Shown here piece by piece: positions 3,660 to 44,146 of a DNA stretch of 64,000 nt (position 1 is its first letter; every line of letters starts with the position of its first letter). Below the pieces are notes generated by a model that was given only the letters and a program-made list of their open reading frames with translations, did no database searches and had not been told where the DNA came from. Where the stretch lies: the NCBI RefSeq assembly GCF_047663525.1, contig NC_092602.1, positions 9,421,501-9,485,500 of the forward strand, given 5' to 3'. Source of the stretch: Anas platyrhynchos. Lineage: Eukaryota; Chordata; Aves; Anseriformes; Anatidae. The position numbers were made by a program, and so were the translations under genes.

Positions 3660-3703
3660 ATTTGCATGGAGGGGCCGTGCTGCGGCCGGGCGGGGGTTTA
3701 AGA
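3660..3703 (+). promoter_or_regulatory. V promoter: octamer and TATA-like box
   Basis: Octamer ATTTGCAT at 3660-3667, the Oct/OCA-B site typical of Ig V promoters. TTTAAGA follows at 3697-3703, 37 nt away, and the leader ATG is 107 nt from the octamer. Confidence 0.9.
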
Positions 3704-3766
3704 GGGAGTCGGGGTCTGCGGCACAGCCCCGTCGGCGTGGGGACGCGCAGCTGGTGGGACCTCGCC

Positions 3767-4228
3767 ATGGCCTGGGCCCCTCTCCTCCTCGCAGTGCTCG
3801 CCCACACCTCAGGTGCCCTGGACACACTCGCTGCGCCCAGCGGTGCCCTTTGGGCTGCTGAGTGGTGAGGGCTGTGCGTGTGGGGCACTCACTGAGCCCT
3901 TTTTCTCCCCTCTCTCCTCTCCCTCTCCAGGTTCCCTGGTCCAGGCAGAGCTGACTCAGCCAGCCTCGAAGTCGGTGAACCTGGGAGACAACGTGGAGAT
4001 AACCTGCTCTGGGGGTAGCTACGGCTACTATGCCTGGCACCAGCAGAAAACCCCTGGCACTGGCCCTGTCACCGTGATCTATGACAACACCAACAGACCC
4101 TCAGATATCCCTTCAAGATTCTCTGGTTCCTTGTCTGGCTACACAGCCACGTTAACCATCACTGGAGTCCAAGCTGAGGACGAGGCTGTCTATTTCTGTG
4201 GTGACTGGAACAACAGTGCTAGCGCTTA
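3767..4228 (+). CDS. IGLV: IGLV gene 1, apparently functional
   Basis: This is the 5'-most complete V gene. The leader exon 3767-3812 encodes [15 protein letters not shown] and splits a Gly codon at the GT donor. The V exon 3931-4228 follows a polypyrimidine AG acceptor. CDR1 is [12 protein letters not shown]2 DNTNRPS, and germline CDR3 [10 protein letters not shown]. Cys23, Trp35 and Cys88 are present with no stop. Unusual residues are His after Trp35 (WHQQ instead of WYQQ or WFQQ), AELTQ at the mature N terminus, and YFC instead of YYC. It follows a class 1 flank. The product would be the variable domain of a secreted or membrane Ig light chain after VJ joining. Function is inferred from intact parts, not from expression data. 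Confidence 0.88.
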
Positions 4229-4267
4229 CACAGTGATACAGAGCAATGGGGAAGTGATACAAAAACC
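4229..4267 (+). other. V 23-spacer RSS
   Basis: CACAGTG, 23-bp spacer, ACAAAAACC, directly abutting V gene 1. Confidence 0.93.
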
Positions 4268-4631
4268 TCCTGCCATCAGAGGAGCAGCTGGCTCCCTGCT
4301 GTCCCCTCAGATGGTGGCACACGTCCCCATCTCATTACTGCTCTTACAGCTCTGTGCTGCAAGTGGCAGTGCCTGCTGTCCCTGCTCTGCCCTCCTGCAG
4401 AACCCCAGGACTCTGCCCTTCCCTCAGGGATGGGATGGCCCCAGCAGCCCCATCCCTGCCCTAAGCTGCAGGACCCAGGTACCCCTGTGCTCCGAGGCTG
4501 CTCCCGGGCCCTGAAGGCTGCCTCCCTGCCCTAGGGCATCACTGCAGGGGCTCAGCCCGCAGAAAGCACCAATAGACCACAATGTGTGGATCGCTAAAGA
4601 GCCAGGTCAAAGCTTCACCTTCAGACCATGA

Positions 4632-4938
4632 CAGGCAGTGCTTACTCAGCTAGCCTCAAAGACGGTGAACCCGGGTGGAAACTTGGAGATCACCTGCTCT
4701 GGGGCTAGCGCTGCCAGTGATGGTAAATACATGTATTATTACGGCTGGTACCAGTAGAAGACCCCTGGCATAGCCCTGTCACCGTGATCTACCAGAACAA
4801 CAAGAGACCCTCAGGCATCCCTTTGCGATTGTCTGGTTTTGCATCTGACTACACGGGCACATTAACCATCACTGGGGTCCAAGCCGAGGACAAGGCTTTC
4901 TATTACTGTGGGAGCTGGGACAGCAGTGCTGGTGCTTA
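4632..4938 (+). pseudogene. IGLV pseudogene, 5'-truncated
   Basis: The copy begins abruptly within FR1 (CAGGCAGTGCTTACTCAG) after V 3'-flank sequence, with no splice acceptor, leader or promoter. CDR1 is long. The codon after TGGTACCAG is TAG, and one base is missing near 'CCTGGCATAGCC', shifting frame. The heptamer position reads TATAGTA and the nonamer is absent. Confidence 0.85.
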
Positions 4939-5130
4939 TATAGTAACACAGAGCAATGAGGGCATGAGGGATAGACCACACCTAGAAATGGAGGCTTTCT
5001 GCCCTTGTCCCTTAGGGCTGAGCAGGGCTTAGGTGCTGAGGCAGGTTCCTGGTCCCTCTGCATGACCACAGTTGTAAGTCTATTAATTTGTTGAGCCCCG
5101 TTTTCTCCACACTCTCCTGGCCCTCTCTAG

Positions 5131-5422
5131 CTTCTCTGGTTCATGGAACACAGAATCAGATGGCCTCTAACCTTGTGAGACCATGAGACACCATGCAGAT
5201 CACTTGCTCTGGGAGTAGCTACAGTTATGTCTGGTACCAGCAGAAGATCCCTGGCATTGACCCTGTCACCATGATCTATGAGAACAGCAACAGACCCTCG
5301 GGTATCCCTTCATGATTCTCTGGTTCCTTGTCTGGCTCCACAGCCACGTTAACCATCACTGGGGTCCAAGCTGAGGACGAGGCCGTCTATTACTGTGGAA
5401 GTAGAGACAGCAGTGGTGCTGC
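5131..5422 (+). pseudogene. IGLV pseudogene, leaderless
   Basis: The V exon follows a diverged acceptor (CCCTCTCTAG). FR1 is badly diverged, and a TGA replaces CGA in the 'PSRF' motif (CCTTCATGA). The FR3 end and the CDR3 GSRDSSGAA remain. There is no leader and no RSS (TTTAGTG). Its downstream sequence matches that after the Vs at 651 and 11230. Confidence 0.85.
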
Positions 5423-5622
5423 TTTAGTGACACAGGGAGATGTGGAAGTGAGCAACAGACTGGTGCTAAAGACAAAGTTTTTCTGCCCTCTTCCCTCAAG
5501 GGGGCAGCTGTAGACTCTTCTCTTCCAGAGATGTTGATCCCTTTCTTAGTACATGAAGATGGTTTTGTGTGCAGGGCACTCGCTGAGCCCCGTTTTCTCC
5601 CCTCTCTCCTCTCCCTCTCCAG

Positions 5623-6355: not shown

Positions 6356-6650
6356 GGTCCCTGGTCCAGGCAGCGCTGACTCAGTCGGAGCCGAAGTCGG
6401 TGAACCTGGGAGGCACCGTGCAGATCACCTGCTCCGGGGGTAGTGGCATCTACTGCTGGTTCCAGCAGAAGACCCCTGGCAGTGCCCCTGTCACTGTGAT
6501 CTATGGCAACACCAACAGACCCTCGGGCATCCCTTCTCGATTCTCTGGTTCTGCATCTTGCTCCACGGGCACATTAACTATCACTGGGGTCCAAGCCGAG
6601 GACGAGGCCGTCTATTACTGTGGGAGCTACGAAAGCAGCTATGTTGGTAT
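6356..6650 (+). pseudogene. IGLV, open frame and RSS, but leaderless
   Basis: The V exon is open (CDR1 [11 protein letters not shown]2 GNTNRPS, CDR3 [10 protein letters not shown]). The acceptor is intact and the 23-RSS is consensus. Odd extra cysteines occur in CDR1 (IYCW) and FR3 (SASCST). Upstream, 6040-6300 duplicates 1580-1860 and holds no octamer or MAWAP leader, so it is probably recombination-competent but not expressible. It shares CDR3 features with the complete V at 15375. Confidence 0.8.
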
Positions 6651-6689
6651 CACAGTGTCACAGTGCAATGGGGAAGTGATACAAAAACC
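6651..6689 (+). other. V 23-spacer RSS
   Basis: CACAGTG, 23-bp spacer, ACAAAAACC, next to a leaderless V. Confidence 0.9.
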
Positions 6690-9699: not shown

Positions 9700-9743
9700 A
9701 TTTGCATGGAGGGGCCGTGCTGCGGGCGGGCGGGGGTTTAAGA
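9700..9743 (+). promoter_or_regulatory. V promoter: octamer and TATA-like box
   Basis: ATTTGCAT at 9700-9707 and TTTAAGA at 9737-9743. The leader ATG is 107 nt from the octamer. Confidence 0.9.
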
Positions 9744-9806
9744 GGGAGTCGGGGTCCGCGGCACAGCCCCGTCGGCGTGGGGACGCACAGCTGGTGGGAT
9801 CTCGCC

Positions 9807-10265
9807 ATGGCCTGGGCCCCTCTCCTCCTCGCAGTGCTCGCCCACACCTCAGGTGCCCTGGACACACTCGCTGCACCCGGCCAGGCCCTTTGGGCTGCTG
9901 CGCGCTGAGGGCTGTGCGTGTGGGGCACTCGCTGACCCCGTTTTCTCCCCTTTCTCCTCTCCCTCTCCAGGTTCCCTGGTCCAGGCAGCGCTGACTCAGT
10001 CCGAGCCGCAGTCGGTGAATCCGGGAGGCACCGTGCAGATCACCTGCTCCGGGGGTGGCAGCTACTACGGCTGGTACCAGCAGAAGACCCCTGGCAGTGC
10101 CCCTGTCACTGTGATCTATGACAATACCAACAGACCCTCGGGCATCCCTTCTCGATTCTCTGGTTCGAAATCTGGCTCCACAGCCACGTTAACCATCACT
10201 GGCGTCAAAGCCGAGGACGAGGCCGTCTATTACTGTGGTGCCTACGACAGCAGTGGTACTGGTGG
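9807..10265 (+). CDS. IGLV: IGLV gene 2, apparently functional
   Basis: Leader exon 9807-9852, 118-nt intron, V exon 9971-10265. The V belongs to the '[10 protein letters not shown]' FR1 type. CDR1 is [11 protein letters not shown]2 DNTNRPS, CDR3 [12 protein letters not shown]3 has the [16 protein letters not shown] form known from the chicken functional Vλ, with a Lys in GVKAED. All conserved Cys and Trp residues are present, and the promoter and RSS are intact. It is the first gene with a class 2 flank. Confidence 0.88.
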
Positions 10266-10304
10266 CACAGTGTCACATTGCTATGGGGAAGTGATACAAA
10301 AACC
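10266..10304 (+). other. V 23-spacer RSS
   Basis: CACAGTG, 23-bp spacer, ACAAAAACC. Confidence 0.93.
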
Positions 10305-11739: not shown

Positions 11740-12050
11740 TTCCCTGGTCCAGGCAGCAATTACTCAGCCGGCCTCAAAGATGGTGAACCCAGGAGACAAC
11801 GTGGACATCACCTGCTCCGGAGGTAGCGCTGATAGTAATGGCAAATATTGGTATGCCTGGTACCAGCAGAAGACCCCTGGCACTGGCCCTGTCACCGTGA
11901 TCTATAGCAATGACAAGAGACTCTCAGGCATCCCTTCACGATTCTCTGCTTCCACATCTGGCTCCACAAACACGTTAACCATCACTGGGGTCCAAGCTGA
12001 GGATGAGGCCGTCTATTTCTGTGGTGGCTACAGTAGTGGTCTTAAATTGG
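11740..12050 (+). pseudogene. IGLV pseudogene, shifted acceptor, intact RSS
   Basis: The V body is open: CDR1 [17 protein letters not shown]2 SNDKRLS, CDR3 [11 protein letters not shown]-to-A change moves the acceptor (CTCTCCAAG). No leader or promoter lies upstream. The 23-RSS is consensus. It is close to the complete V at 23801. Confidence 0.82.
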
Positions 12051-12089
12051 CACAGTGACACAGCGCAGTGGGGAAGTGATACAAAAACC
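12051..12089 (+). other. V 23-spacer RSS
   Basis: CACAGTG, 23-bp spacer, ACAAAAACC, next to a leaderless V. Confidence 0.9.
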
Positions 12090-13020: not shown

Positions 13021-13064
13021 ATTTGCATGGAGGGGCCGTGCTGCGGCCGGGCGGGGGTTTAAGA
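13021..13064 (+). promoter_or_regulatory. V promoter: octamer and TATA-like box
   Basis: ATTTGCAT at 13021-13028 and TTTAAGA at 13058-13064. Confidence 0.9.
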
Positions 13065-13127
13065 GGGAGTTGGGGTCCGCGGCACAGCCCCGTCGGCGTG
13101 GGGACGCGCAGCTGGTGGGATCTCGCC

Positions 13128-13628
13128 ATGGCCTGGGCCCCTCTCCTCCTCGCGGTGCTCGCCCACACCTCAGGTGCCCTGGACACACTCGCTGCACCCG
13201 GCCGGGCCCTTTGGGCAACGGGGCCCTGATCTCGTCCCACTGCTGCGCGCTCAGGGCTGTGTGTGTGGGGCACTCGCTAACCCCGTTTTCTCCCCTCTCT
13301 CCTCTCCCTCTCCAGGTTCCCTGGTCCAGGCAGCGCTGACTCAGTCGGAGCCGCAGTCGGTGAACCTGGGAGGCACCGTGCAGATCACCTGCTCCGGGGG
13401 TAGCGCTCACAGTGATGGGAAATATTATTATGGCTGGTTCCAGCAGAAGACCCCTGGCACTGCCCCTGTCACCGTGATCTATAGCAACAACAAGAGACCC
13501 TCGGACATCCCTTCACGATTCTCTGCGTCCACATCTGGCTCCACAAACACGTTAACCATCACTGGGGTCCGAGCCGAGGACGAGGCCGTCTATTACTGTG
13601 GGAGCTGGGACAGCAGTGCTAGTGCTGG
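13128..13628 (+). CDS. IGLV: IGLV gene 3, apparently functional
   Basis: Leader exon 13128-13173, 142-nt intron (longer by a 'GGGCAACGGGGCCC' segment shared with gene 4), V exon 13316-13628. FR1 is of the [10 protein letters not shown] type with the long CDR1 [17 protein letters not shown]2 SNNKRPS, CDR3 [12 protein letters not shown]2 has WFQQ, FR3 [16 protein letters not shown]. Conserved residues, promoter and RSS are intact. It combines a FR1 like gene 2 with the long CDR1 and FR3 of genes 6 and 10. Confidence 0.88.
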
Positions 13629-13667
13629 CACAGTGACACAGTGCAATGGGGAAGTGATACAAAAACC
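13629..13667 (+). other. V 23-spacer RSS
   Basis: CACAGTG, 23-bp spacer, ACAAAAACC. Confidence 0.93.
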
Positions 13668-15079: not shown

Positions 15080-15123
15080 ATTTGCATGGAGGGGCCGTGC
15101 TGCGGCCGGGCGGGGGTTTAAGA
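15080..15123 (+). promoter_or_regulatory. V promoter: octamer and TATA-like box
   Basis: ATTTGCAT at 15080-15087 and TTTAAGA at 15117-15123. Confidence 0.9.
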
Positions 15124-15186
15124 GGGAGTCGGGGTCCGCGACACAGCCCCGTCGGTGTGGGGACGCGCAGCTGGTGGGATCTCGCC

Positions 15187-15669
15187 ATGGCCTGGGCCCC
15201 TCTCCTCCTCGCAGTGCTCGCCCACACCTCAGGTGCCCTGGACACACTCGCTGCGCCCGGCCGGGCCCTTTGGGCAACGGGGCCCTGGACTCGTTCCACT
15301 GCTGCGCACTCAGGGCTGTGCGTGTGGGGCACTCGCTGACTCCGTTTTCTCCCCTTTCTCCTCTCCCTCTCCAGGTTCCCTGGTCCAGGCAGCACTGACT
15401 CAGTCGGAGCCGCAGTCGGTGAATCCGGGAGGCACCGTGCAGATCACCTGCTCCGGGGGTAGTGGCAGCTATGGCTGGTTCCAGCAGAAGACCCCTGGCA
15501 CTGCCCCTGTCACTGTGATCTATGGCAACACCAACAGACCCTCGGGCATCCCTTCTCGATTCTCTGCTTCCACATCTGGCTCCGTGTCAACGTTAACCAT
15601 CACTGGGGTCCAAGCCGAGGACGAGGCCGTCTATTACTGTGGGAGCTACGAAGGCAGCTATGTTGGTGT
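15187..15669 (+). CDS. IGLV: IGLV gene 4, apparently functional
   Basis: Leader exon 15187-15232, V exon 15375-15669. FR1 is [13 protein letters not shown]1 SGGSGSYG is short, CDR2 GNTNRPS, CDR3 [12 protein letters not shown]3 is [16 protein letters not shown], shared with genes 8, 11 and 12. The CDR3 is shared in part with the leaderless V at 6356. Promoter, leader, conserved residues and RSS are intact. Confidence 0.88.
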
Positions 15670-15708
15670 CACAGTGATACAGAGCAATGGGGAAGTGATA
15701 CAAAAACC
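15670..15708 (+). other. V 23-spacer RSS
   Basis: CACAGTG, 23-bp spacer, ACAAAAACC. Confidence 0.93.
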
Positions 15709-17866: not shown

Positions 17867-17910
17867 ATTTGCATGGAGGGGCCGTGCTGCGGGCGGGCGG
17901 GGGTTTAAGA
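17867..17910 (+). promoter_or_regulatory. V promoter: octamer and TATA-like box
   Basis: ATTTGCAT at 17867-17874 and TTTAAGA at 17904-17910. Confidence 0.9.
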
Positions 17911-17973
17911 GGGAGTCGGGGTCCGCGGCACAGCCCCGTCGGCGTGGGGACGCACAGCTGGTGGGATCTCGCC

Positions 17974-18432
17974 ATGGCCTGGGCCCCTCTCCTCCTCGCG
18001 GTGCTCGCCCACACCTCAGGTGCCCTGGACACACTCGCTGCGCCCGGCCGGGCCCTTTGGGCTGCTGCGTGCTGAGGGCTGTGCGTGTGGGGCACTCGCT
18101 GAGCCCTTTTTCTCCCCTCTCTCCTCTCCCTCTCCAGGTTCCCTGGTCCAGGCAGCGCTGACTCAGCCGGCCTCGAAGTCGGTGAACTTGGGAGGAACCG
18201 TGCAGATCACCTGCTCCGGGAGTAGCTACGGTTATGGCTGGTACCAGCAGAAGACCCCTGGCAGTGCCCCTGTCACCGTCATCTATGGTGACAGCAACAG
18301 ACCCTCGGGCATCCCTTCTCGATTCTCTGGTTCGAAATCTGGCTCCACAGCCACATTAACCATCACTAGCGTCCAAGCCGAGGACGAGGCCGTCTATTAC
18401 TGTGGGAACTACGACAGCAGTGCTGGTGCTGA
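17974..18432 (+). CDS. IGLV: IGLV gene 5, apparently functional
   Basis: Leader exon 17974-18019, 118-nt intron, V exon 18138-18432. FR1 is [13 protein letters not shown]1 [11 protein letters not shown]2 GDSNRPS, CDR3 [12 protein letters not shown]3 is [16 protein letters not shown] with Ser where most copies have Gly. Conserved Cys and Trp, promoter and RSS are intact. Confidence 0.88.
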
Positions 18433-18471
18433 CACAGTGACACCGAGCAATTGGGAAGTGATACAAAAACC
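18433..18471 (+). other. V 23-spacer RSS
   Basis: CACAGTG, 23-bp spacer, ACAAAAACC. Confidence 0.93.
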
Positions 18472-23529: not shown

Positions 23530-23573
23530 ATTTGCATGGAGGGGCCGTGCTGCGGGCGGGCGGGGGTTTAAGA
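23530..23573 (+). promoter_or_regulatory. V promoter: octamer and TATA-like box
   Basis: ATTTGCAT at 23530-23537 and TTTAAGA at 23567-23573. Confidence 0.9.
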
Positions 23574-23636
23574 GGGAGTCGGGGTCCGCGGCACAGCCCC
23601 GTCGGCGTGGGGACGCACAGCTGGTGGGATCTCGCC

Positions 23637-24112
23637 ATGGCCTGGGCCCCTCTCCTCCTCGCGGTGCTCGCCCACACCTCAGGTGCCCTGGACACACTCG
23701 CTGCGCCCGGCTGGGCCCTTTGGGCTGCTGCACGCTGAGGGCTGTGCGTGTGGGGCACTCGCTGACCCTGTTTTCTCCCCTCTCTCCTCTCCCTCTCCAG
23801 GTTCCCTGGTCCAGGCAGGAACTACTCAGCCAGCCTCGAAGACGGTAAACCCAGGAGACAACGTGGACATCACCTGCTCCGGGGGTAGCGCTGATAGTAA
23901 TGGCAAATATTGGTATGGGTGGTACCAGCAGAAGACCCCTGGCACTGGCCCTGTCACCGTGATCTATAGCAACGACAAGAGACCCTCGGGCATCCCTTCT
24001 CGATTCTCTGCGTCCACATCTGGCTCCACAAACACGTTAACCATCACTGGGGTCCAAGCTGAGGATGAGGCCGTCTATTACTGTGGTGGCTACGGTGGTG
24101 GTCTTAAATTGA
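23637..24112 (+). CDS. IGLV: IGLV gene 6, apparently functional
   Basis: Leader exon 23637-23682, V exon 23801-24112. The mature N terminus is [24 protein letters not shown]1 is long ([14 protein letters not shown]), CDR2 SNDKRPS, CDR3 [11 protein letters not shown]3 is [16 protein letters not shown]. Conserved residues, promoter and RSS are intact. The CDR3 end (..LKL before the heptamer) defines a V subgroup with genes 7, 8, 10, 11 and 12. Confidence 0.88.
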
Positions 24113-24151
24113 CACAGTGACACAGCGCAATGGGGAAATGATACAAAAACC
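24113..24151 (+). other. V 23-spacer RSS
   Basis: CACAGTG, 23-bp spacer, ACAAAAACC. Confidence 0.93.
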
Positions 24152-24489
24152 TCCTGCCATAGCAGGAGCAGGTGGCTCCCTGCTGTCCCCTCAGATGGCA
24201 CAGGTCCGTGACTCAACAATGCCCTTGGGGCCCAGTACTGCAAGTGCCTGTGCATGGTCTTTCTGCTCTGCCCTCCTGCAGAACCCCAGGGCTGTACCCA
24301 TTCCTCAGGGAAGATATGGCTGCAACAGCCCTGTCTCTGCCCCAAACTCTGTACAGGTTCCTCTGTGCTCCCAGGCTGCTCCCGGAGCCCTGATAGCTGC
24401 CTCCCTGCCCAGATACAGACACTGCCCTGGGGCATCACTGCAGGGACTTAGCCTGCAGAAAGCAGCAGGAGACCACAATGTGTGGATCG

Positions 24490-24699
24490 CTAAATATTGG
24501 TATGGCTGGTACCAGCAGAAGACCCCTGGCACTGGCCCTGTCACCGTGATCTATAGTAACGACAAGAGACCCTCGGGCATCCCTTCATGATTCTCTGGTT
24601 CCTTGTCTGGCTCCACGAACACGTTAACCATCACTGGTATCCAAGCCAAAGACAAGGCCGTCTATTTCTGTGGTGCCTGGGATGGCAGTACTGAATTTT
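24490..24699 (+). pseudogene. IGLV pseudogene, truncated at CDR1, RSS intact
   Basis: V 3'-flank (GTGTGGATCGCTAAA) is fused to TATTGGTATGGCTGGTACC of a long-CDR1 V, sharing a few A/T bases at the joint. TGA replaces CGA at PSRF. The CDR3 is [10 protein letters not shown] consensus 23-RSS (24700-24738) follows. The same joint is seen at 37465. Confidence 0.82.
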
Positions 24700-24935
24700 C
24701 ACAGTGACACAGAGCAATGGGGAAGTGATACAAAAACCTTCTGCCATCACAGGAGCAGCTGTCTCCCTGCTGTCCCCTCAGATGGTGGCGCAGGTCTCTG
24801 ACTCAGCACTTCCCTTGGGGCCCAATGCTGCAGGTGGCCGTTCCTGCTGTCCCTGCTCTACCCTCCAAAAGAGTCCCAAGGCTGTGCCTGTGCCTCAGGG
24901 ACGGGATGGCCCCAGCACACCCATCCCTTACCCAT

Positions 24936-27381: not shown

Positions 27382-27425
27382 ATTTGCATGGAGGGGCCGT
27401 GCTGCGGCCGGGCGGGGGTTTAAGA
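27382..27425 (+). promoter_or_regulatory. V promoter: octamer and TATA-like box
   Basis: ATTTGCAT at 27382-27389 and TTTAAGA at 27419-27425. Confidence 0.9.
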
Positions 27426-27488
27426 GGGAGTTGAGGTCCGTGGCACAGCCCCGTCGGCGTAGGGACGCGCAGCTGGTGGGATCTCGCC

Positions 27489-27988
27489 ATGGCCTGGGCC
27501 CCTCTCCTCCTCGCGGTGCTCGCCCACACCTCAGGTGCCCTGGACACACTCGCTGCACCCGGCCGGGCCCTTTGGGCATCGGGGCCCTGATCTTGTCCCG
27601 CTGCTGTGCGCTCAGGGGTGTGCGTGGGGGGCACTTTCTGACCCCGTTTTCTCCCCTCTCTTCTCTCCCTCTCCAGGTTCCCTGGTCCAGGCAGCAATTT
27701 CTCAGCCAGCCTCAAAGTCGGTGAATCCGGGAGGCAATGTGGAGATCACCTGCTCTGGGGGTAGCGCTGATAGTAATGGCAAATATTGGTATGGCTGGTA
27801 CCAGCAGAAGACCCCTGGCACTGCCCCTGTCACCGTGATCTATAGCAACGACAAGAGACCCTCGGGCATCCCTTCAAGATTCTCTGGTTCCTTGTCTGGC
27901 TCCACAAACACATTAAGCATCACTGGGGTCCAAGCCGAGGACGAGGCCGTCTATTACTGTGCTAGCTGGGATGGCAGTACTAAATTGT
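27489..27988 (+). CDS. IGLV: IGLV gene 7, apparently functional
   Basis: Leader exon 27489-27534, V exon 27677-27988. The N terminus is [24 protein letters not shown]1 [17 protein letters not shown]2 SNDKRPS, CDR3 [11 protein letters not shown]3 is [16 protein letters not shown], with Ser in place of the usual Thr. Cysteines, Trp35, promoter and RSS are intact. CDR1 and CDR2 are identical to genes 6 and 10 while FR3 is not. Confidence 0.88.
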
Positions 27989-28027
27989 CACAGTGACACA
28001 GCGCAATGGGGAAGTGATACAAAAACC
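27989..28027 (+). other. V 23-spacer RSS
   Basis: CACAGTG, 23-bp spacer, ACAAAAACC. Confidence 0.93.
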
Positions 28028-29440: not shown

Positions 29441-29484
29441 ATTTGCATGGAGGGGCCGTGCTGTGGCCGGGCAGGGGTTTAAGA
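29441..29484 (+). promoter_or_regulatory. V promoter: octamer and TATA-like box
   Basis: ATTTGCAT at 29441-29448 and TTTAAGA at 29478-29484. The GC-rich spacer carries two changes (CTGTGGCCGGGCAGG). Confidence 0.9.
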
Positions 29485-29547
29485 GGGAGTCGGGGTCCGC
29501 GGCACAGCCCCGTCGGCGTGGGGACGCGCAGCTGGTGGGATCTCGCC

Positions 29548-30039
29548 ATGGCCTGGGCCCCTCTCCTCCTCGCGGTGCTCGCCCACACCTCAGGTGCCCT
29601 GGACACACTCGCTGTGCCCAGCCTGGCCCTTTGGGCGACCGGGCCCTGGCCTCGTCCCGCTGCTGCGTGCTGAGGGCTGTGCATGTGGGGCACTCACTGA
29701 GCCTCATTTTCTCCCCTCTCTCCTCTCCCTCTCCAGGTTCCCTGGTCCAGGCAGCGCTGACTCAGCCGGCCTCGAAGTCGGTGAACCCAGGCGACACCGT
29801 GCAGATCACCTGCTCTGGGGGAAGTAGCAGCTACTACGGCTGGTTCCAGCAGAAGACCCCTGGCACTGCCCCTGTCACCGTGATCTATGACAATACCAAG
29901 AGACCCTCGGGCATCCCTTCACGATTCTCTGCTTCAACATCTGGCTCCGTGTCCACGTTAACCATCACAGGGGTCCAAGCCGAGGATGAGGCCGTCTATT
30001 ACTGTGCGAGCAGCTACACTAGTGATGGTTTTAAATTGA
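29548..30039 (+). CDS. IGLV: IGLV gene 8, apparently functional
   Basis: Leader exon 29548-29593, V exon 29737-30039. FR1 is [19 protein letters not shown]1 [12 protein letters not shown]2 DNTKRPS, CDR3 [13 protein letters not shown]3 is [16 protein letters not shown]. All conserved residues are present. The heptamer has one change (CACCGTG), at its fourth base, outside the critical CAC, so recombination may be weaker but not abolished (from general RSS knowledge). Confidence 0.85.
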
Positions 30040-30078
30040 CACCGTGACATAGTGCAATGGGGAAGTGATACAAAAACC
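30040..30078 (+). other. V 23-spacer RSS, variant heptamer
   Basis: CACCGTG, 23-bp spacer, ACAAAAACC. It is the only complete V here with a non-consensus heptamer. Confidence 0.88.
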
Positions 30079-32716: not shown

Positions 32717-32760
32717 ATTTGCATGGAGGGGCCGTGCTGCGGCCGGGCGGGGGTTTAAGA
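32717..32760 (+). promoter_or_regulatory. V promoter: octamer and TATA-like box
   Basis: ATTTGCAT at 32717-32724 and TTTAAGA at 32754-32760. Confidence 0.9.
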
Positions 32761-32823
32761 GGGAGTTGGGGTCCGCGGCACAGCCCCGTCGGCGTGGGGA
32801 CACGCAGCTGGTGGGATCTCGCC

Positions 32824-33282
32824 ATGGCCTGGGCCCCTCTCCTCCTCGCGGTGCTCGCCCACACCTCAGGTGCCCTGGACACACTCGCTGCACCCGCCCG
32901 GGCCCTTTGGGCTGCTGCGTGCTGAGGGCTGTGCGTGGGGGGCACGCAATGACCCCGTTTTCTCCCCTCTCTCCTCTCCCTCTCCAGGTTCCCTGGTCCA
33001 GGCAGCACTGACTCAGCCGGCCTCGAAGTCGGTGAACCCAGGAGACACCGTGGAGATCACCTGCTCTGGGAGTACCAACTACTATGGCTGGTACCAGCAG
33101 AAGACCCCTGGCAGTGCCCCTGTCACCGTCATCTATAGGGACAGCAACAGACCCTCGGGCATCCCTTCTCGATTCTCTGGTTCTGCATCTGGCTCCACAG
33201 CCACATTAACCATCACTGGCATCCAAGCCGAGGACGAGGCCGTCTATTACTGTGGTAGCTGGGACAGCAGTGCTAGTGCTGG
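32824..33282 (+). CDS. IGLV: IGLV gene 9, apparently functional
   Basis: Leader exon 32824-32869, 118-nt intron, V exon 32988-33282. FR1 [19 protein letters not shown]1 [11 protein letters not shown]2 RDSNRPS, CDR3 [12 protein letters not shown]3 [16 protein letters not shown]. All conserved residues, promoter and RSS are intact. The CDR3 end is identical to that of gene 3, 20 kb away. Confidence 0.88.
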
Positions 33283-33321
33283 CACAGTGACACAGAGCAA
33301 TGGGGAAATGATACAAAAACC
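33283..33321 (+). other. V 23-spacer RSS
   Basis: CACAGTG, 23-bp spacer, ACAAAAACC. Confidence 0.93.
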
Positions 33322-35465: not shown

Positions 35466-35744
35466 AGGCACATATTGATAGGACAAGAAGTGAAGATGTT
35501 AAACTGATAGCAGGCAGATTTAGAGTAGATACCAGGAAGGAATTGTTCACTCAGTGGCGGTGAGGCTCTGCATCAGGCTGCCCAGAGAAGCTGTGGCTGC
35601 CCCATCCCTGAAGAGCCCAAGGCCAGGCTGGATGGGCCTTTGGGACACCCAGTGTGGTGGGAGGCGGCGTGCCCATGGTAGGGGTTGGGGAAGGTGGGTG
35701 GTAAGGTCCCTTCCCACCCAAACCATGCGGTGATTCTGTGATTC
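35466..35744 (+). mobile_element. CR1 LINE 3' end, forward
   Basis: Same piece as 8681-8958. Confidence 0.85.
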
Positions 35745-36355
35745 CCCGTTCTTCGACCCATGCCCATTACCTCTCGTGCCAGTGCGTGTTGCCTCCAGGA
35801 AGCGCCTGGCTCCATTTCCTTGGTGCCCCTGCAGGAGCGGTCCCTCAGCTAAGACACCTGCTCGCCTCTTGCTCTCGGGGCTGACAAACACCAGCCGTCC
35901 CCGTGCGAGCGGCGCTCTGAGCCCTTCGCCATCCTCGGGGCTCCTGCTAACGCAGCCGCGGCCGCTGGGGGCCTCCTTAACCCAAGGCACTTTGCTGGCC
36001 CCGGTGTGCTGGGGGTCCTGCCAGGCCCTGGGGCCTCTTCTGTTGAGCCGCTGCCACCTGCTCAGCCCCTGTGTGCCTGGGCAGGCACCGGCTGTGTTGG
36101 GGACAAGCAGCAGCGGCCACGGACATGTAAAGCTGTGTGAGGGGAAGATGGGGCAATGGGGTGCTGAGGCCGGAGGTGTCTGCACCTCACAGCGGTGCTG
36201 TGGGAGCTGTGAGCGCTGCGTAGTACCCATAGTACCCGTAGTACCCGTAGTACCCGTAGTACCCGCCAGCCCCTGTGTCCCTGCTCTCCCTGGCTGCTTG
36301 GTTCCGTGAGTGCAGGGCCCCGTCTGAGGCAAGGGGCTGCGTGCGAGCGCTTTGC
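35745..36355. repeat. Class 2 V 5'-flank repeat with minisatellite, copy 5
   Basis: As 8959-9580, minisatellite at about 36220-36266, five units. Confidence 0.75.
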
Positions 36356-36478
36356 GCCTGGGTGCTGCCACGTGTCCCCAGCACGAGGCCGGGGACAACC
36401 CCCCTGTGCCTGCGGTGGAGGGGCCGGGCGGGGAGGAGGGGAGCGAGGCGCGGGACGTGGCCGAGAGCGCGGGGCCGC

Positions 36479-36522
36479 ATTTGCATGGAGGGGCCGTGCT
36501 GCGGCCGGGCGGGGGTTTAAGA
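36479..36522 (+). promoter_or_regulatory. V promoter: octamer and TATA-like box
   Basis: ATTTGCAT at 36479-36486 and TTTAAGA at 36516-36522. Confidence 0.9.
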
Positions 36523-36585
36523 GGGAGTCGGGGTCCGCGACACAGCCCCGTCGGCGTGGGGACGCGCAGCTGGTGGGATCTCGCC

Positions 36586-37085
36586 ATGGCCTTGGCCCCT
36601 CTCCTCCTCGCGGTGCTCGCCCACACCTCAGGTGCCCTGGACACACTCGCTGCGCCCGGCTGGGCCCTTTGGGCATCGGGGCCCTGACCTTGTCCCGCTG
36701 CTGCGCGATCAGGGGTGTGCGTGGGGGGCACTTTCTGACCCCGTTTTCTCCCCTCTCTTCTCTCCCACTCCAGGTTCCCTGGTCCAGGCAGCAATTTCTC
36801 AGCCAGCCTCAAAGTCGGTGAACCCAGGAGACAATGTGGACATCACCTGCTCCGGGGGTAGTGCTGATAGTAATGGCAAATATTGGTATGGCTGGTACCA
36901 GCAGAAGACCCCTGGCACTGGCCCTGTCACTGTGATCTATAGCAACGACAAGAGACCCTCGGGCATCCCTTCTCGATTCTCTGCGTCCACATCTGGCTCC
37001 ACAAACACGTTAACCATCACTTGGGTCCAAGCTGAGGATGAGGCCGTCTATTACTGTGGTGGCTACAGTGCTGGTTTTAAATTGA
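36586..37085 (+). CDS. IGLV: IGLV gene 10, apparently functional
   Basis: Leader exon 36586-36631 encodes [15 protein letters not shown], the only leader with Leu for Trp at position 3. V exon 36774-37085; the polypyrimidine tract has one change (CTCCCACTCCAG). N terminus [24 protein letters not shown]1 [17 protein letters not shown]2 SNDKRPS, CDR3 [11 protein letters not shown]3 has ITWVQ in place of ITGVQ. Conserved residues, promoter and RSS are intact. Confidence 0.86.
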
Positions 37086-37124
37086 CACAGTGACACAGCG
37101 CAATGGGGAAATGATACAAAAACC
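37086..37124 (+). other. V 23-spacer RSS
   Basis: CACAGTG, 23-bp spacer, ACAAAAACC. Confidence 0.93.
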
Positions 37125-37464
37125 TCCTGCCATAGCAGGAGCAGGTGGCTCCCTGCTGTCACCTCAGATGGCAGAGGTCCGTGACTCAACAATGCCCTTG
37201 GGGCCCAGTACTGCAAGTGCCTGTGCATGGTCTCTCTGCTCTGCCCTCCTGCAGAACCCCAGGGCGGTACCCATTCCTCAGGGAAGATATGGCTGCAACA
37301 GCCCTGTCCCTGCCCCAAACTCTGTACAGGTTCCTCTGTGCTCCCAGGCTGCTCCCGGAGCCCTGATGGCTGCCTCCCTGCCCAGATACAGACACTGCCC
37401 TAGGGCATCACTGCAGGGACTCAGCCTGCAGAAAGCACCAGGAGACCACAATGTGTGGATCGCT

Positions 37465-37672
37465 AAATATTGGTATGGCTGGTACCAGCAGAAGACCCCT
37501 GGCACTGGCCCTGTCACCGTGATCTATAGTAACGACAAGAGACCCTCGGGCATCCCTTCATGATTCTCTGGTTCCTTGTCTGGCTCCACGAACACGTTAA
37601 CCATCACTGGGGTCCAAGCCAAGGACGAGGCCGTCTATTTCTGTGGTGACTGGGATGGCAGTACTAAATTGT
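37465..37672 (+). pseudogene. IGLV pseudogene, truncated at CDR1
   Basis: Same fusion joint as at 24490 (V 3'-flank to TATTGGTATGGC) and the same TGA at PSRF. CDR3 GDWDGSTKL. The heptamer CACAGTG is intact with a 23-bp spacer, but the nonamer reads AAAAAAACC (37703-37711). Confidence 0.82.
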
Positions 37673-37906
37673 CACAGTGACACAGCGCAATGGGGTAGTG
37701 ACAAAAAAACCTCCTGCCATCACAGGAGCAGCTGGCTCCCTGCTGTCCCCTCAGATGGTGGCGCAGGTCTCTGACTCAGCACTTCCCTTGGGGCCCAATG
37801 CTGCAGGTGGCCGTTCCTGCTGTCCCTGCTCTACCCTCCAAAAGAGTCCCAAGGCTGTGCCTATCCCTCAGGGACGGGATGGCCCCAGCAGACCCATCCC
37901 TGCCCC

Positions 37907-38135
37907 ATGCTGATGGACCCAGCTACTGGGAGTAGCATCAGCTACAGGTGGTACCAGCAAAAGACACAGGCACTGGCCTTGTCACCGTGATCTACCACAA
38001 CAACACGAGACCCCTGGAAGCAATTCATGGTTCTCTGGTTCCACATCTGGCACTACGAACACATTAACCATCACTGGGGTCCAAGCCGAGGACGAGGCCG
38101 TCTATTTCTGTGGTGCCTGGGATGGCAGCGCTGGG
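37907..38135 (+). pseudogene. IGLV pseudogene, truncated at CDR1
   Basis: Member of the recurring truncated unit, with FR2 frame loss ('AAGACACAGGCACTGGCC') and a disturbed CDR2/FR3 start (GGAAGCAATTCATGG). FR3 end and [10 protein letters not shown] are kept. No RSS. Nearly identical to 41181. Confidence 0.82.
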
Positions 38136-38505
38136 CACGGCGAGTCCCAGCAATGGGGAAGTGAGAGGCCAAGCTGCTGTGGTACCAGGGCCCCTCGGGT
38201 GCCTGCTGCTGCAGCTTGGGCCTGGTCTAGGGCCAGGAAATGCCCCCGTGAGCTGGGCCTGCTGTGTGGCACGTGCCCCGTTCCTGCACAAGCCCTCTGT
38301 GCTGCCTGCAGGAGCCAGGGCAGAGGAGCAGCAGAGTAAGGGGGAAGCGCAGGTGCTGGGGCTGGGGAAAGCCCCAGACGGCTGGGGCTGGCGCTGAGCT
38401 GGAAATCGTCTCCTCCCACCCTGCTCCACGCTGGGCCGGCTGCTGCCGCCTGCCCAGGGCCTGTCCCGTCTTGGTGTGAAGGCCTCCAAGATGGAGGCTC
38501 GGCAC

Positions 38506-39099
38506 TGTGGTGGTTTTACTCGAGCGGGCAGCCGAGCCCCAGCACAACCGCTGTCTCAGCCCCCCGCCCCTTCAAAGAGGAAGGGGGAGAAAATACAAGA
38601 CAAGGAGTTTGAGGTTGAAATGAGAATTGTTTAATTAAAGAGAAAGCGAATGTGGAGTAAAAGAAACAAAAGAATCAACAAGGCCGCGCGGAAGCACAGA
38701 GAGAAAGGAAAAATATTATCCCCTACTTCCCCTCAACAAGCAATGTTCAGCCACGTCCTGGGAAGCAGGACCTCAAAACGCGTAGCGGTTGTTCAGGAGG
38801 ACAGCCCCCTCCCCGCCAGAGCCCCCTGTTTATTGCTGAGTGAGACATCAGGAGCTATGGGACATCCCTTTGTTGGGTTAGGTCAGCTGCCCTGGCGATG
38901 TCCCCTCCCCATCCCTTGACGACCCCAAGCCTGCTGGCTCTAGGGGGCTTGGAGGGAGTCCTGATGCTGTGCCAGCACTACGCAGCAAGAGGCACCACAC
39001 TGGAGTGATACCAGTGCCGTTTCCACTACGAGTGCAGAGCACAGCACTGTGTGGGTTGCTGCAGGGAAAGATGACTCCAGCCCAGACAGACCCAACACA
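38506..39099 (-). mobile_element. ERV LTR, full length
   Basis: Third copy of the LTR at 25533, same length and flanks. Confidence 0.6.
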
Positions 39100-39190
39100 G
39101 GCGGCTCTCCGGGACAGGCGTTGCATGCGTTTCACGGGCCTCGCTGCAAAAAGGCTTTTTGCTCCACTGAACAGATTTTGACCAAAACGA

Positions 39191-39619
39191 TCGGCGGGCT
39201 GGAGCACCTCTCCTGCAAAGAAAGGCTGAGGGAGCTGGGCTTGTTTAGCTTGGAGAAGAGAAAGCTCTGAGGAGGCCTTGTTGCAGCCTTTCAGCATTTG
39301 GGGGCGACTTATAGGAAACAAGGAGACAGATATTTTAGAGGGGCACGTAGTGATAGGACAAGGGGTGATGGTGTTAAACTGATAGCAGGCAGATTTAGGG
39401 TAGATACCAGGAAGGAATTGTTCACTCAGTGGCGGTGAGGCTCTGCACCAGGCTGCCCAGAGAAGCTGTGGCTGCCCCATCCCTGAAGAGCCCAAGGCCA
39501 GGCTGGACGGGCCTTTGGGACACCCGATGTGGTGGGAGGCGGCGTGCCCATGGCAGGGGGCTGGGGAAGGTGGGCGGTAAGGTCCCTTCCCACCCAAACC
39601 ATGCGGTGATTCTGTGATT
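39191..39619 (+). mobile_element. CR1 LINE 3' end, forward
   Basis: Same CR1 piece as 26221-26646 and 31561-31989. Confidence 0.85.
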
Positions 39620-40230
39620 CCCCGTTTGCCAGCCTGTGCCCGTTTCCTCTCGTGCCAGTGCCTGTTGCCTCCGGGAAGCGCCTGGCTCCATTTCCTTGGT
39701 GCCCTGCAGGAGCGGTCCCTCAGCTAAGACACCTGCTGGCCTCTTGCTCTCGGGGCTGACAAACGCCAGCCGTCCCCGTGCGAGCGGCGCTCTGAGCCCT
39801 TCGCCATCCTCGGGGCTCCTGCTAACGCAGCCACGGCCGCTGGGGGCCTCCTTAACCCAAGGCACTTTGCTGGCCCCGGTGTGCTGGGGGTCCTGCCAGG
39901 CCCTGGGGCCTCTTCTGTTGAGCCGCTGCCACCTGCTCAGCCCCTGTGTGCCTGGGCAGGCACCGGCTGTGTTGGGGACAAGCAGCAGCGGCCACGGACA
40001 TGTAAAGCTGTGTGAGGGGAAGATGGGGCAATGGGGTGCTGAGGCCGGAGGGGTCTGCACCTCACAGCGGTGCTGTGGGAGCTGTGAGCGCTGCGTAGTA
40101 CCCATAGTACCCGTAGTACCCGTAGTACCCGTAGTACCCGCCAGCCCCTGTGTCCCTGCTCTCCCTGGCTGCTTGGTTCCGTGAGTGCAGGGCCCCGTCT
40201 GAGGCAAGGGGCTGCGTGCGAGCGCTTTGC
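39620..40230. repeat. Class 2 V 5'-flank repeat with minisatellite, copy 6
   Basis: As 8959-9580, minisatellite at about 40095-40140, five units. Confidence 0.75.
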
Positions 40231-40353
40231 GCCTGGGTGCTGCCACGTGTCCCCAGCACGAGGCCGGGGACAACCCCCCTGTGCCTGCGGTGGAGGGGCC
40301 GGGCGGGGAGGAGGGGAGCGAGGCGCGGGACGTGGCCGAGAGCGCGGGGCCGC

Positions 40354-40397
40354 ATTTGCATGGAGGGGCCGTGCTGCGGCCGGGCGGGGGTTTAAGA
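40354..40397 (+). promoter_or_regulatory. V promoter: octamer and TATA-like box
   Basis: ATTTGCAT at 40354-40361 and TTTAAGA at 40391-40397. Confidence 0.9.
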
Positions 40398-40460
40398 GGG
40401 AGTCGGGGTCCGCGACACAGCCCCGTCGGCGTGGGGACGCGCAGCTGGTGGGATCTCGCC

Positions 40461-40946
40461 ATGGCCTGGGCCCCTCTCCTCCTCGCGGTGCTCGCCCACA
40501 CCTCAGGTGCCCTGGACACACTCGCTGCGCCCGGCCGGGCCCTTTGAGCAATGGGGCCCTGCCCTCGTTCCACTGCTGCGTGCTGAGGGCTGTGTGTGTG
40601 GAGCACTCACTGAGCCCCATTTTCTCCCCTCTCTCCTCTCCCTCTCCAGGTTCCCTGGTCCAGGCAGCTCTGACTCAGCCGGCCTCGAAGACGGTGAATC
40701 CAGGCGACACCGTGCAGATCACCTGCTCCGGTAGCAGTAACTACGGCTGGTTCCAGCAGAAGACCCCTGGCACTGGCCCTGTCACCGTGATCTATAGCAA
40801 CGACAAGAGACCCTCGGGCATCCCCTCACGATTCTCTGCTTCCACATCTGGCTCCGTGTCCACGTTAACCATCACTGGGGTCCAAGCTGAGGATGAGGCC
40901 GTCTATTACTGTGCAGGCTACTACAGTAGTGATGGTTTTAAATTCA
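40461..40946 (+). CDS. IGLV: IGLV gene 11, apparently functional
   Basis: Leader exon 40461-40506, V exon 40650-40946. FR1 [16 protein letters not shown]. The shortest CDR1 here (SGSSNYG) is combined with CDR2 SNDKRPS of the long-CDR1 group and the [11 protein letters not shown]3 of genes 4, 8 and 12. CDR3 [11 protein letters not shown]. Conserved residues, promoter and RSS are intact. The mixture suggests past germline conversion (inference). Confidence 0.88.
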
Positions 40947-40985
40947 CACAGTGACACAGAGAGATGGGGAAGTGATACAAAAACC
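40947..40985 (+). other. V 23-spacer RSS
   Basis: CACAGTG, 23-bp spacer, ACAAAAACC. Confidence 0.93.
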
Positions 40986-41180
40986 TCCTGCCATCACAGG
41001 AGCAGCTGGCTCCCTGCTGTCTCCTCAGGTGGTGGTGCAGGTCCCTGACTCAGCACTGCCCTTGGGGCCCAATGCTGCAGGTGGCCGTTCCTGCTGTCCC
41101 TGCTCTACCCTCCAAAAGAGTCCCAAGGCTGTGCCTATTCCTCAGGGACGGGATGGCCCCAGCAGACCCATCCCTGCCCC

Positions 41181-41409
41181 ATGCTGATGGACCCAGCTAC
41201 TGGGAGTAGCATCAGCTACAGGTGGTACCAGCAAAAGACACAGGCACTGGCCTTGTCACCGTGATCTACCACAACAACAAGAAACCCCTGGAAGCAATTC
41301 ATGGTTCTCTGGTTCCACATCTGGCACTACGAACACGTTAACCATCACTGGGGTCCAAGCCGAGGACGAGGTCGTCTATTTCTGTGGTGCCTGGGATGGC
41401 AGCGCTGGG
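41181..41409 (+). pseudogene. IGLV pseudogene, truncated at CDR1
   Basis: Member of the recurring truncated unit with the same FR2 frame loss as 37907. EDEV replaces EDEA in FR3. No RSS. Confidence 0.82.
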
Positions 41410-41779: not shown

Positions 41780-41908
41780 TGTGGTGGTTTTACTCGAGCG
41801 GGCAGCCGAGCCCCAGCACAACCGCTGTCTCAGCCCCCCGCCCCTTCAAAGAGGAAGGGGGACAAATTACAACACAAAGAGCTCGAGGTTTGAGGTGAGA
41901 GTGACTTC
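41780..41908 (-). mobile_element. ERV LTR fragment
   Basis: Same truncated LTR end as 7923 and 34710. Confidence 0.55.
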
Positions 41909-42535
41909 ACAGAATCATAGAATATCCCGAGTTGGAAGGGACCCGTCAGGATCATCAAGTCCAACTCCTGGCACCTAACACGTCTACCCAAAAGTTTAGA
42001 CCATGTCATTAAGCGCACAGCCCAAACACTTTTGAAATTCAGACAGGCTTGGTGCAGTGACTACGTCCCTGGGGAGCCTGCTGCAGTGTGCAACCACCCT
42101 CTTGGTGAAGAACCTCTTCCTGATGTCCAGCCTAAATGTCCCCTGCCTCAGCTTAACACCATTACAGCAGGTCCTATCACTGGTGTTTACAGAGAATAGG
42201 TCACCTGCCTCTGCACTCCCCCTCAAAGGAAGTTGTAGACTGCGATGAGGTCCTCCCTCAGCCTCCTCTTCTGCAGGCTGAACAGGCCCAGCACCCTCAT
42301 CCGCTCCTCATACGTCTTCCCCTCTAGGCCCTTCACGATCTTTGTTGCCCTCCTCTGGAAACATTCCAACAGTTTCATGTCCTTCTTGTACTGTGGTGCC
42401 CAGAACTGCACACAGTACGCGAGGTGAGGCCGCACCAGCGCAGAGTGGAGCAGGACAATCACCTCCCTCGACCGACTGGAGATGCTGTGCTTATGGCATC
42501 CCAGGATAGGGTTGGCCTTCCTGGCTGCCAGGAAG
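41909..42535 (-). mobile_element. CR1 LINE fragment, inverted
   Basis: Same piece as 8051-8680 and 34839-35465. Confidence 0.85.
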
Positions 42536-42815
42536 AGGCACATATTGATAGGACAAGAAGTGAAGATGTTAAACTGATAGCAGGCAGATTTAGAGTAGAT
42601 ACCAGGAAGGAATTGTTCACTCAGTGGCGGTGAGGCTCTGCATCAGGCTGCCCAGAGAAGCTGTGGCTGCCCCATCCCTGAAGAGCCCAAGGCCAGGCTG
42701 GATGGGCCTTTGGGACACCCGGTGTGGTGGGAGGTGGCGTGCCCATGGCAGGGGGCTGGGGAAGGTGGGCGGTAAGGTCCCTTCCCACCCAAACCATGTG
42801 GTGATTCTGTGATTC
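42536..42815 (+). mobile_element. CR1 LINE 3' end, forward
   Basis: Same piece as 8681-8958 and 35466-35744. Confidence 0.85.
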
Positions 42816-43420
42816 GTCAGCCTGTGCCCGTTGCCTCTCGTGCCAGTGCCTGTTGCCTCCGGGAAGCGCCTGGCTCCATTTCCTTGGTGCCCCTGCAGGA
42901 GCGGTCCCTCAGCTAAGACACCTGCTGGCCTCTTGCTCTCGGGGCTGACAAACGCCAGCCGTCCCCGTGCGAGCGGCGCTCTGAGTCCTTCGCCATCCTC
43001 GGGGCTCCTGCTAACGCAGCCACGGCCGCTGGGGGCCTCCTTAACCCAAGGCACTTTGCTGGCCCCGGTGTGCTGGGGGTCCTGCCAGGCCCTGGGGCCT
43101 CTTCTGTTGAGCCGCTGCCACCTGCTCAGCCCCTGTGTGCCTGGGCAGGCACCGGCTGTGTTGGGGACAAGCAGCAGCGGCCACGGACATGTAAAGCTGT
43201 GTGAGGGGAAGATGGGGCAATGGGGTGCTGAGGCCGGAGGGGTCTGCACCTCACAGCGGTGCTGTGGGAGCTGTGAGCGCTGCGTAGTACCCATAGTACC
43301 CGTAGTACCCGTAGTACCCGTAGTACCCGCCAGCCCCTGTGTCCCTGCTCTCCCTGGCTGCTTGGTTCCGTGAGTGCAGGGCCCCGTCTGAGGCAAGGGG
43401 CTGCGTGCGAGCGCTTTGCG
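42816..43420. repeat. Class 2 V 5'-flank repeat with minisatellite, copy 7
   Basis: As 8959-9580, minisatellite at about 43284-43329, five units. Confidence 0.75.
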
Positions 43421-43542
43421 CCTGGGTGCTGCCACGTGTCCCCAGCACGAGGCCGGGGACAACCCCCCTGTGCCTGCGGTGGAGGGGCCGGGCGGGGAGG
43501 AGGGGAGCGAGGCGCGGGACATGGCCGAGAGCGTGGGGCCGC

Positions 43543-43586
43543 ATTTGCATGGAGGGGCTGTGCTGCGGGCGGGCGGGGGTTTAAGA
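43543..43586 (+). promoter_or_regulatory. V promoter: octamer and TATA-like box
   Basis: ATTTGCAT at 43543-43550 and TTTAAGA at 43580-43586, upstream of the J-proximal V. Confidence 0.9.
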
Positions 43587-43649
43587 GGGAGTCGGGGTCC
43601 GCGGCACAGCCCCGTCGGCGTGGGGACACGCAGCTGGTGGGATCTCGCC

Positions 43650-44107
43650 ATGGCCTGGGCCCCTCTCCTCCTCGCGGTGCTCGCCCACACCTCAGGTGTC
43701 CTGGACACACTCGCTGCGCCCAGCGGGGCCCTTTGGGCTGCTGCGTGCTGAGGGCTGTGCGTGGGGGGCACGCAATGACCCCGTTTTCTCCCCTCTCTCC
43801 TCTCCCTCTCCAGGTTCCCTGGTCCAGGCAGCGCTGACTCAGCCGGCCTCGAAGTCGGTGAATCCGGGAGACACCGTGCAGATCACCTGCTCTGGGGGTG
43901 GCAGCTACTACGGCTGGTTCCAGCAGAAGACCCCTGGCACTGGCCCTGTCACTGTGATCTATGACAATACCAACAGACCCTCGGGCATCCCTTCACGATT
44001 CTCTGCTTCCACATCTGGCTCCGTGTCCACTTTAACCATCACTGGGGTCCAAGCTGAGGATGAGGCTGTCTATTACTGTGGTGACTACAGTAGTAATTTT
44101 AAATTGA
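43650..44107 (+). CDS. IGLV: IGLV gene 12, J-proximal, apparently functional
   Basis: Leader exon 43650-43695, V exon 43814-44107. FR1 [19 protein letters not shown]1 [11 protein letters not shown]2 DNTNRPS, CDR3 [11 protein letters not shown]3 is [16 protein letters not shown]. All conserved residues, promoter and RSS are intact. It lies 2.6 kb from J with no V between, the position held by the single functional VL1 in chicken, and its CDR1-CDR2 resemble that gene. If this species used only one V like chicken, this would be the first candidate, but 11 others are equally complete. Confidence 0.9.
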
Positions 44108-44146
44108 CACAGTGACACAAAGCAATGGGGAAGTGATACAAAAACC
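44108..44146 (+). other. V 23-spacer RSS
   Basis: CACAGTG, 23-bp spacer, ACAAAAACC. This is the RSS closest to J. Confidence 0.93.

What the first reader, a model, noticed from the sequence alone, without database searches (positions are those of the whole stretch)
3660..44146. Twelve complete IGLV genes, not one, in a bird lambda locus
Chicken, duck and zebra finch are described as having a single functional Vλ fed by pseudogene conversion. Here 12 V genes each keep octamer, TATA-like box, leader, splice sites, open V exon and a 23-RSS. This implies that combinatorial VJ joining could contribute alongside, or instead of, gene conversion. The presence of 21 further pseudogenes in the same array makes it an intermediate between the chicken-type and mammal-type strategies.
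Basis: partly seen in the sequence, partly recalled or inferred. Interest (0 to 1): 0.8.

Follow-up and report, generated by a model that had tools for sequence, protein, structure and literature searches.

The report
Duck antibody light-chain gene array
This is the lambda antibody gene cluster of a duck, with a dozen apparently complete variable genes beside many incomplete spare copies; ducks were already reported to differ from chickens in this way, so it confirms known biology rather than overturning it.

Summary
Between 3660 and 44146, 12 IGLV genes keep octamer, TTTAAG box, leader, splice sites, open V exon and 23-RSS. Eleven have a consensus RSS; the one at 30040 has heptamer CACCGTG. 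They face one J and one Cλ. The window shows a third of the array: 106 V segments in all, 72 of them upstream.

The novelty premise fails. The genome is a duck's: four of four mallard Ig primers tested match exactly. Several functional duck Vλ genes are in print: a 2026 preprint gives mallard 11 functional IGLV, 77 pseudogenes and one J, and cites Muscovy and Pekin duck papers (PMC13060830). V choice plus gene conversion is the likely mechanism, but V use was not testable here.

Additions: 11 of 12 leaders encode one peptide, so 'one leader, one V' is unsafe. In 20 kb of the same genome's heavy locus, one V has an RSS. Open RSS-less segments within 20 kb upstream of each complete V fall from 9 to 0 towards J.

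The parts
3660..4267 (+). Complete IGLV: octamer 3660, ATG 3767, V exon 3931-4228, 23-RSS 4229-4267
9700..10304 (+). Complete IGLV: octamer 9700, ATG 9807, V exon 9971-10265, 23-RSS 10266-10304
13021..13667 (+). Complete IGLV: octamer 13021, ATG 13128, V exon 13316-13628, 23-RSS 13629-13667
15080..15708 (+). Complete IGLV: octamer 15080, ATG 15187, V exon 15375-15669, 23-RSS 15670-15708
17867..18471 (+). Complete IGLV: octamer 17867, ATG 17974, V exon 18138-18432, 23-RSS 18433-18471
23530..24151 (+). Complete IGLV: octamer 23530, ATG 23637, V exon 23801-24112, 23-RSS 24113-24151
27382..28027 (+). Complete IGLV: octamer 27382, ATG 27489, V exon 27677-27988, 23-RSS 27989-28027
29441..30078 (+). 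Complete IGLV with non-consensus heptamer CACCGTG: octamer 29441, ATG 29548, V exon 29737-30039, RSS 30040-30078
32717..33321 (+). Complete IGLV: octamer 32717, ATG 32824, V exon 32988-33282, 23-RSS 33283-33321
36479..37124 (+). Complete IGLV (leader residue 3 is L, not W): octamer 36479, ATG 36586, V exon 36774-37085, 23-RSS 37086-37124
40354..40985 (+). Complete IGLV: octamer 40354, ATG 40461, V exon 40650-40946, 23-RSS 40947-40985
43543..44146 (+). J-proximal complete IGLV: octamer 43543, ATG 43650, V exon 43814-44107, 23-RSS 44108-44146
1914..2254 (+). V segment with perfect RSS, a stop near the V exon start, and no leader found
6367..6689 (+). V segment with perfect RSS and open V exon, no leader found
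11750..12089 (+). V segment with perfect RSS and open V exon, AA in place of the AG acceptor, no leader found
24426..24738 (+). 5'-truncated V segment with perfect RSS and an in-frame stop
37462..37711 (+). 5'-truncated V segment with RSS (nonamer AAAAAAACC) and an in-frame stop
46677..46704 (+). 12-RSS of the J (nonamer GGTTTTTGC, heptamer CACTGTG)
46705..46742 (+). IGLJ, encoding GVFGAGTTLTVL, followed by a GTAAGT donor
   Evidence: no second copy at up to 10 mismatches over 34 bases in the 184 kb examined
48538..48857 (+). Cλ exon, carrying exact matches to the mallard IgL inner (48630) and outer (48734) primers
   Evidence: only tblastn match in the 184 kb examined

Best explanation
This is the germline IGL locus of a duck (mallard or Pekin type). 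RAG can join any of about 12 J-proximal promoter-bearing V genes (23-RSS) to the one J (12-RSS) by deletion, since all point the same way. The joined V is then diversified by AID-dependent gene conversion and hypermutation, with other V segments, most of them RSS-less and lying upstream, as donors. Shown here: gene anatomy, integrity of RSS and promoter motifs, one J and one C in the 184 kb examined, orientation, and the array of possible donors. Inferred: that several V genes are really rearranged and that conversion acts on them. These inferences rest on published duck work that I saw only as passages of PMC13060830, a review passage, and titles in reference lists.
For: 12 complete genes. 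16 of 23 exact 23-RSS places found in the genome search lie here. One 12-RSS J and one Cλ. 88 RSS-less V segments, 46 open over at least 80 aa. Heavy-locus control: in 20 kb of C31, one V with an RSS, five paired 12-RSSs (D) and one J-type 23-RSS, in line with the mallard preprint's 1 functional IGHV, 5 IGHD and 1 IGHJ. Among the 12, promoters are 96.8% and leaders 98.7% identical on average, V exons 84.3%. The mallard preprint reports 11 functional IGLV, 77 pseudogenes and 1 IGLJ.
Against: No rearrangement or expression data were at hand; intact motifs and frames do not prove use. A 2023 review says the mallard rearranges a unique VL (PMC10568490). A test for exchange between RSS-bearing and RSS-less V exons was equivocal. 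A genome-wide Cλ search did not complete, so a second λ locus is not excluded.
Confidence: 0.85

Rival explanations
1. Chicken-like use: only the J-proximal V (ATG 43650) rearranges in practice, and the other complete genes act only as donors or relics.
For: A review states that the mallard uses a unique VL, and that in rabbit the most proximal VH is rearranged in 80% of B cells (PMC10568490 passages).
Against: Eleven other genes keep promoter motifs, leader, splice sites and RSS, whereas chicken pseudogenes are said to lack functional promoters and recombination signals. PMC13060830 says multiple functional IGLV are present in Muscovy and Pekin duck, and the titles of McCormack 1989 and Guan 2016 in its reference list say several VL contribute. 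The J-proximal gene has no open RSS-less segment within 20 kb upstream.
Confidence: 0.12
2. Assembly artefact: falsely duplicated haplotypes inflate the number of complete genes.
For: The array is repetitive, with block pairs up to 6.4 kb at 94.2% identity.
Against: No self-match of 1 kb or more reaches 98%. The 12 V exons are 78.5-95.5% identical pairwise. A separate mallard assembly gives a similar count, 11 functional.
Confidence: 0.03

Closest known systems
Mallard (Anas platyrhynchos) IGL locus, PMC13060830 (passages seen; section 5 whole)
   Same: Several functional IGLV (11), many pseudogenes (77), one IGLJ; heavy locus with one functional IGHV, five IGHD, one IGHJ; four of four primers tested match this genome exactly.
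   Different: By that paper's criteria as I applied them (at least 200 nt, no stop, RSS present) I get 15 functional IGLV in the whole locus against 11, and 99 segments of at least 200 nt against 88. Haplotype, breed or method could explain this; not resolved.
Chicken IGL locus
   Same: RSS-less V segments beside V, J and C; one J (PMC3315531 passage).
   Different: Chicken has one functional IGLV with its light-chain pseudogenes all within 20 kb of it (PMC10917233 passage). Here there are 12 complete V, and RSS-less segments lie up to about 113 kb from J.
Mammalian λ loci
   Same: Several complete V genes able to join J.
   Different: There J and C usually come as several J-C blocks (PMC3308330 passage); here one J and one C were found, and 88 of 106 V segments lack a near-consensus RSS.

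Membership tests
Duck-type IGL locus (several functional IGLV, one IGLJ) | More than one IGLV with open frame and 23-RSS | tested here: met
   12 complete genes
Duck-type IGL locus (several functional IGLV, one IGLJ) | Single J with 12-RSS and single Cλ | tested here: met
   Met for the 184 kb examined; the genome-wide Cλ search did not complete
Duck-type IGL locus (several functional IGLV, one IGLJ) | Belongs to a duck | tested here: met
   Mallard IgL inner, IgL outer, IgY outer and IgM outer primers match exactly, four of the eight Ig-specific primers being tested; a lysozyme exon is 53 of 53 identical to PDB 'DEL-I' (that DEL means duck egg lysozyme is recalled). No tool named the species.
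Duck-type IGL locus (several functional IGLV, one IGLJ) | Several V genes used in expressed light chains | not testable with these tools
   No repertoire data at hand
Chicken-type IGL locus | A single V with promoter, leader and RSS | tested here: not met
   12 such genes
Chicken-type IGL locus | A bank of RSS-less V segments | tested here: met
   88 of 106 segments
Mammal-type λ locus | Several J-C blocks | tested here: not met
   One J and one C in the 184 kb examined

The most novel reading that the evidence does not exclude
Choosing a V also chooses its donor neighbourhood. Open RSS-less segments within 20 kb upstream number 9, 9, 8, 7, 5, 2, 1, 1, 0, 0, 0, 0 for the 12 complete V genes from distal to J-proximal. 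If conversion prefers donors within about 20 kb, as reported for the chicken heavy chain, J-proximal joins would be converted mainly by other complete V genes and distal joins mainly by the RSS-less bank, giving two kinds of light-chain repertoire from one array. Against it: the same chicken study saw no distance effect in the light chain (all its donors lie within 20 kb), donors need not be open, and with all open V segments counted the fall is only from 10-13 to 5.
Probability: 0.15. Interest if true: 0.55.

Novelty: already known. Interest (0 to 1): 0.22.

Why it matters
The mallard preprint links a tendency to make glycan-binding influenza antibodies to the duck light chain. A contiguous duck IGL array gives a reference against which V use and donor use could be read. 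It also shows how older work could miss several V genes: 11 of 12 leaders encode one peptide, so the inference 'single leader, hence single V', used for ostrich (PMC3315531 passages), is unsafe.

Tried and rejected
Rejected: assembly duplication; chance RSSs; the mammal-type label (one J, one C in 184 kb). Equivocal: exchange between RSS-bearing and RSS-less V exons. In one search, 6 of 17 RSS-bearing segments have an RSS-less nearest neighbour over the whole exon and 9-10 of 17 by thirds, against 13.84 if random; identical runs reach 94 bases, but frameworks are conserved, so this decides nothing. That call left out 19 of 106 segments (under 250 nt). Former RSS positions of RSS-less segments show a few recurring heptamers (TATAGTG, TTTAGTG, TACAGGG, CACGGCG), which suggests that RSS-less lineages multiplied after losing the RSS; no tree was built. 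Six RSS-less segments upstream still keep an intact leader, one of them with an octamer. One upstream segment (-6.1 kb) has a perfect nonamer but heptamer CAAGGTG and is counted as RSS-less. A Pfam scan of ten chosen ORFs downstream of Cλ gave one match. In the listings of six library searches I saw no paper giving duck light-chain use V by V; supplements were not open to me. Guan 2016 and Lundqvist 2006 are not held; Guan 2016 and McCormack 1989 are known to me only through citing text and titles.
Full report
OBSERVATION. The window lies at G000:C16:9421501-9485500 in a genome of 1.26 Gb and 42 contigs. I read 184 kb around it without gaps or N. With three V exon queries tblastn finds 106 V segments between -66.3 kb and 44.1 kb in window coordinates, 104 on + and 2 on -; 34 are in the window. 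Twelve of these 34 have octamer, TTTAAG box, leader, GT donor, AG acceptor, an open frame with two cysteines, and a 23-RSS. Eleven of 12 RSSs match the consensus heptamer and nonamer; 30040 has CACCGTG. Shuffles give 0.01 matches against 17 seen. The genome search gives 23 exact places, 16 of them in this locus and all 16 on +; its backwards control gives 2.

Of the 72 upstream segments, one (-41393) has a consensus RSS, leader and open frame, but the octamer is gone; another (-6.1 kb) has a perfect nonamer but heptamer CAAGGTG. Upstream segments start about 595 bp apart (median); the complete genes are about 3.3 kb apart. There is one J, 46705-46742, with a 12-RSS at 46677-46704, and one Cλ exon, 48538-48857; no second copy of either was found in the 184 kb. 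A genome-wide Cλ search did not complete.

SPECIES. Primers for mallard Ig from PMC13060830: IgL inner and outer match exactly in Cλ, IgY outer and IgM outer match exactly once each on C31. Four of eight Ig-specific primers were tested and four matched. A lysozyme exon is 53 of 53 identical to PDB 5v8g and 5vjo, 'lysozyme isoform I (DEL-I)'. In a haemoglobin alpha search, after six tandem constructs, the best chain is 3eok, then 1faw; that these are duck and goose, and that DEL is duck egg lysozyme, is recalled. So it is a duck, most likely mallard or Pekin; no tool named it.

HEAVY-CHAIN CONTROL. In C31:5864001-5884000, 14 open V-like frames were listed on both strands, and one of them is followed by an RSS in the scan (5875237, heptamer CACGGTG). 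Five paired 12-RSSs (D segments) and one J-type 23-RSS follow. This fits the mallard preprint's 1 functional IGHV, 5 IGHD and 1 IGHJ.

ARTEFACT TEST. From -70 kb to 46 kb no self-match of 1 kb or more reaches 98% identity; the largest is 6.4 kb at 94.2%. The 12 V exons are 78.5-95.5% identical pairwise. Haplotype duplication is unlikely; read depth was not available.

MECHANISM. The 12 V genes and J point the same way, so joining would be deletional and, with one J, could happen once per allele (inference). V choice then gives about 12-fold variety, and conversion from other segments must supply most of the rest (inference from chicken, PMC10917233 passages, and from mallard heavy chains, PMC13060830 passages). 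Among the 12, promoters (96.8%) and leaders (98.7%) are more alike than V exons (84.3%). Eleven of 12 leaders encode one peptide, so work that reads a single leader as a single V, as in ostrich (PMC3315531 passages), could miss several V genes.

DONOR GRADIENT. Of 88 RSS-less segments, 46 are open over at least 80 aa, 3 of these in the window. Within 20 kb upstream of each complete gene, from distal to proximal, the open RSS-less segments number 9, 9, 8, 7, 5, 2, 1, 1, 0, 0, 0, 0; all RSS-less segments 16, 17, 15, 14, 10, 10, 7, 7, 6, 7, 5, 5; all open V segments, RSS or not, 10, 12, 13, 13, 12, 9, 7, 8, 6, 5, 5, 5. Donors need not be open, so the first series overstates the effect. In chicken, preferred heavy-chain donors lie within 20 kb; no distance effect was seen in the light chain, whose pseudogenes all lie within 20 kb of the V (PMC10917233 passages).

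COMPARISON AND NOVELTY. PMC13060830 (passages; section 5 whole) reports 11 functional IGLV, 77 pseudogenes and one IGLJ in mallard, and says multiple functional IGLV are present in Muscovy and Pekin duck. PMC13320880 (section 24 whole, other passages) reports 43 IGLV on average in waterfowl against 18 in other birds, counting V genes without stops. PMC10568490 (passages) gives the older view: a unique VL in mallard, two in Muscovy duck. By the preprint's criteria, as I applied them, this locus has 15 functional IGLV (the 12, plus 6651, 12051 and -41393); the difference from 11 is unexplained. The finding is real, and known both in kind and for ducks.

Noticed in passing
window 56311-57162 (-): An ORF downstream of Cλ matches part of the eukaryotic carbonic anhydrase family (PF00194, E 8.8e-9, ORF residues 15-47), so an exon of such a gene probably lies beside the locus.
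   Followed up: partly
window 47936-48265: A TA-rich repeat tract lies between J and Cλ.
   Followed up: no
G000:C17:1390992-2125272 (L006 is one member): More than 40 of the 150 scored V-set matches lie in this 0.73 Mb stretch, on both strands (counted by eye; 811 candidates, so a lower bound). The one examined is closest to MOG and butyrophilin V domains in the PDB.
   Followed up: partly
L013:8131-8645 (C16:9379631-9380145, window -41869 to -41355): A lone IGLV with perfect RSS, leader and open frame sits deep among RSS-less segments; its octamer is gone while the TTTAAG box is intact.
   Followed up: partly
C16:9381835-9382113 (window -39665 to -39387, segment 25): An RSS-less V segment still keeps a perfect octamer and leader, the mirror image of the gene 2 kb upstream of it.
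   Followed up: no
window 21867-28242 and 34804-41200: A 6.4 kb block pair at 94.2% identity repeats the same order: complete V, truncated RSS-bearing V, a fragment with CACGGCG at the heptamer position, complete V, which points to block duplication.
   Followed up: partly
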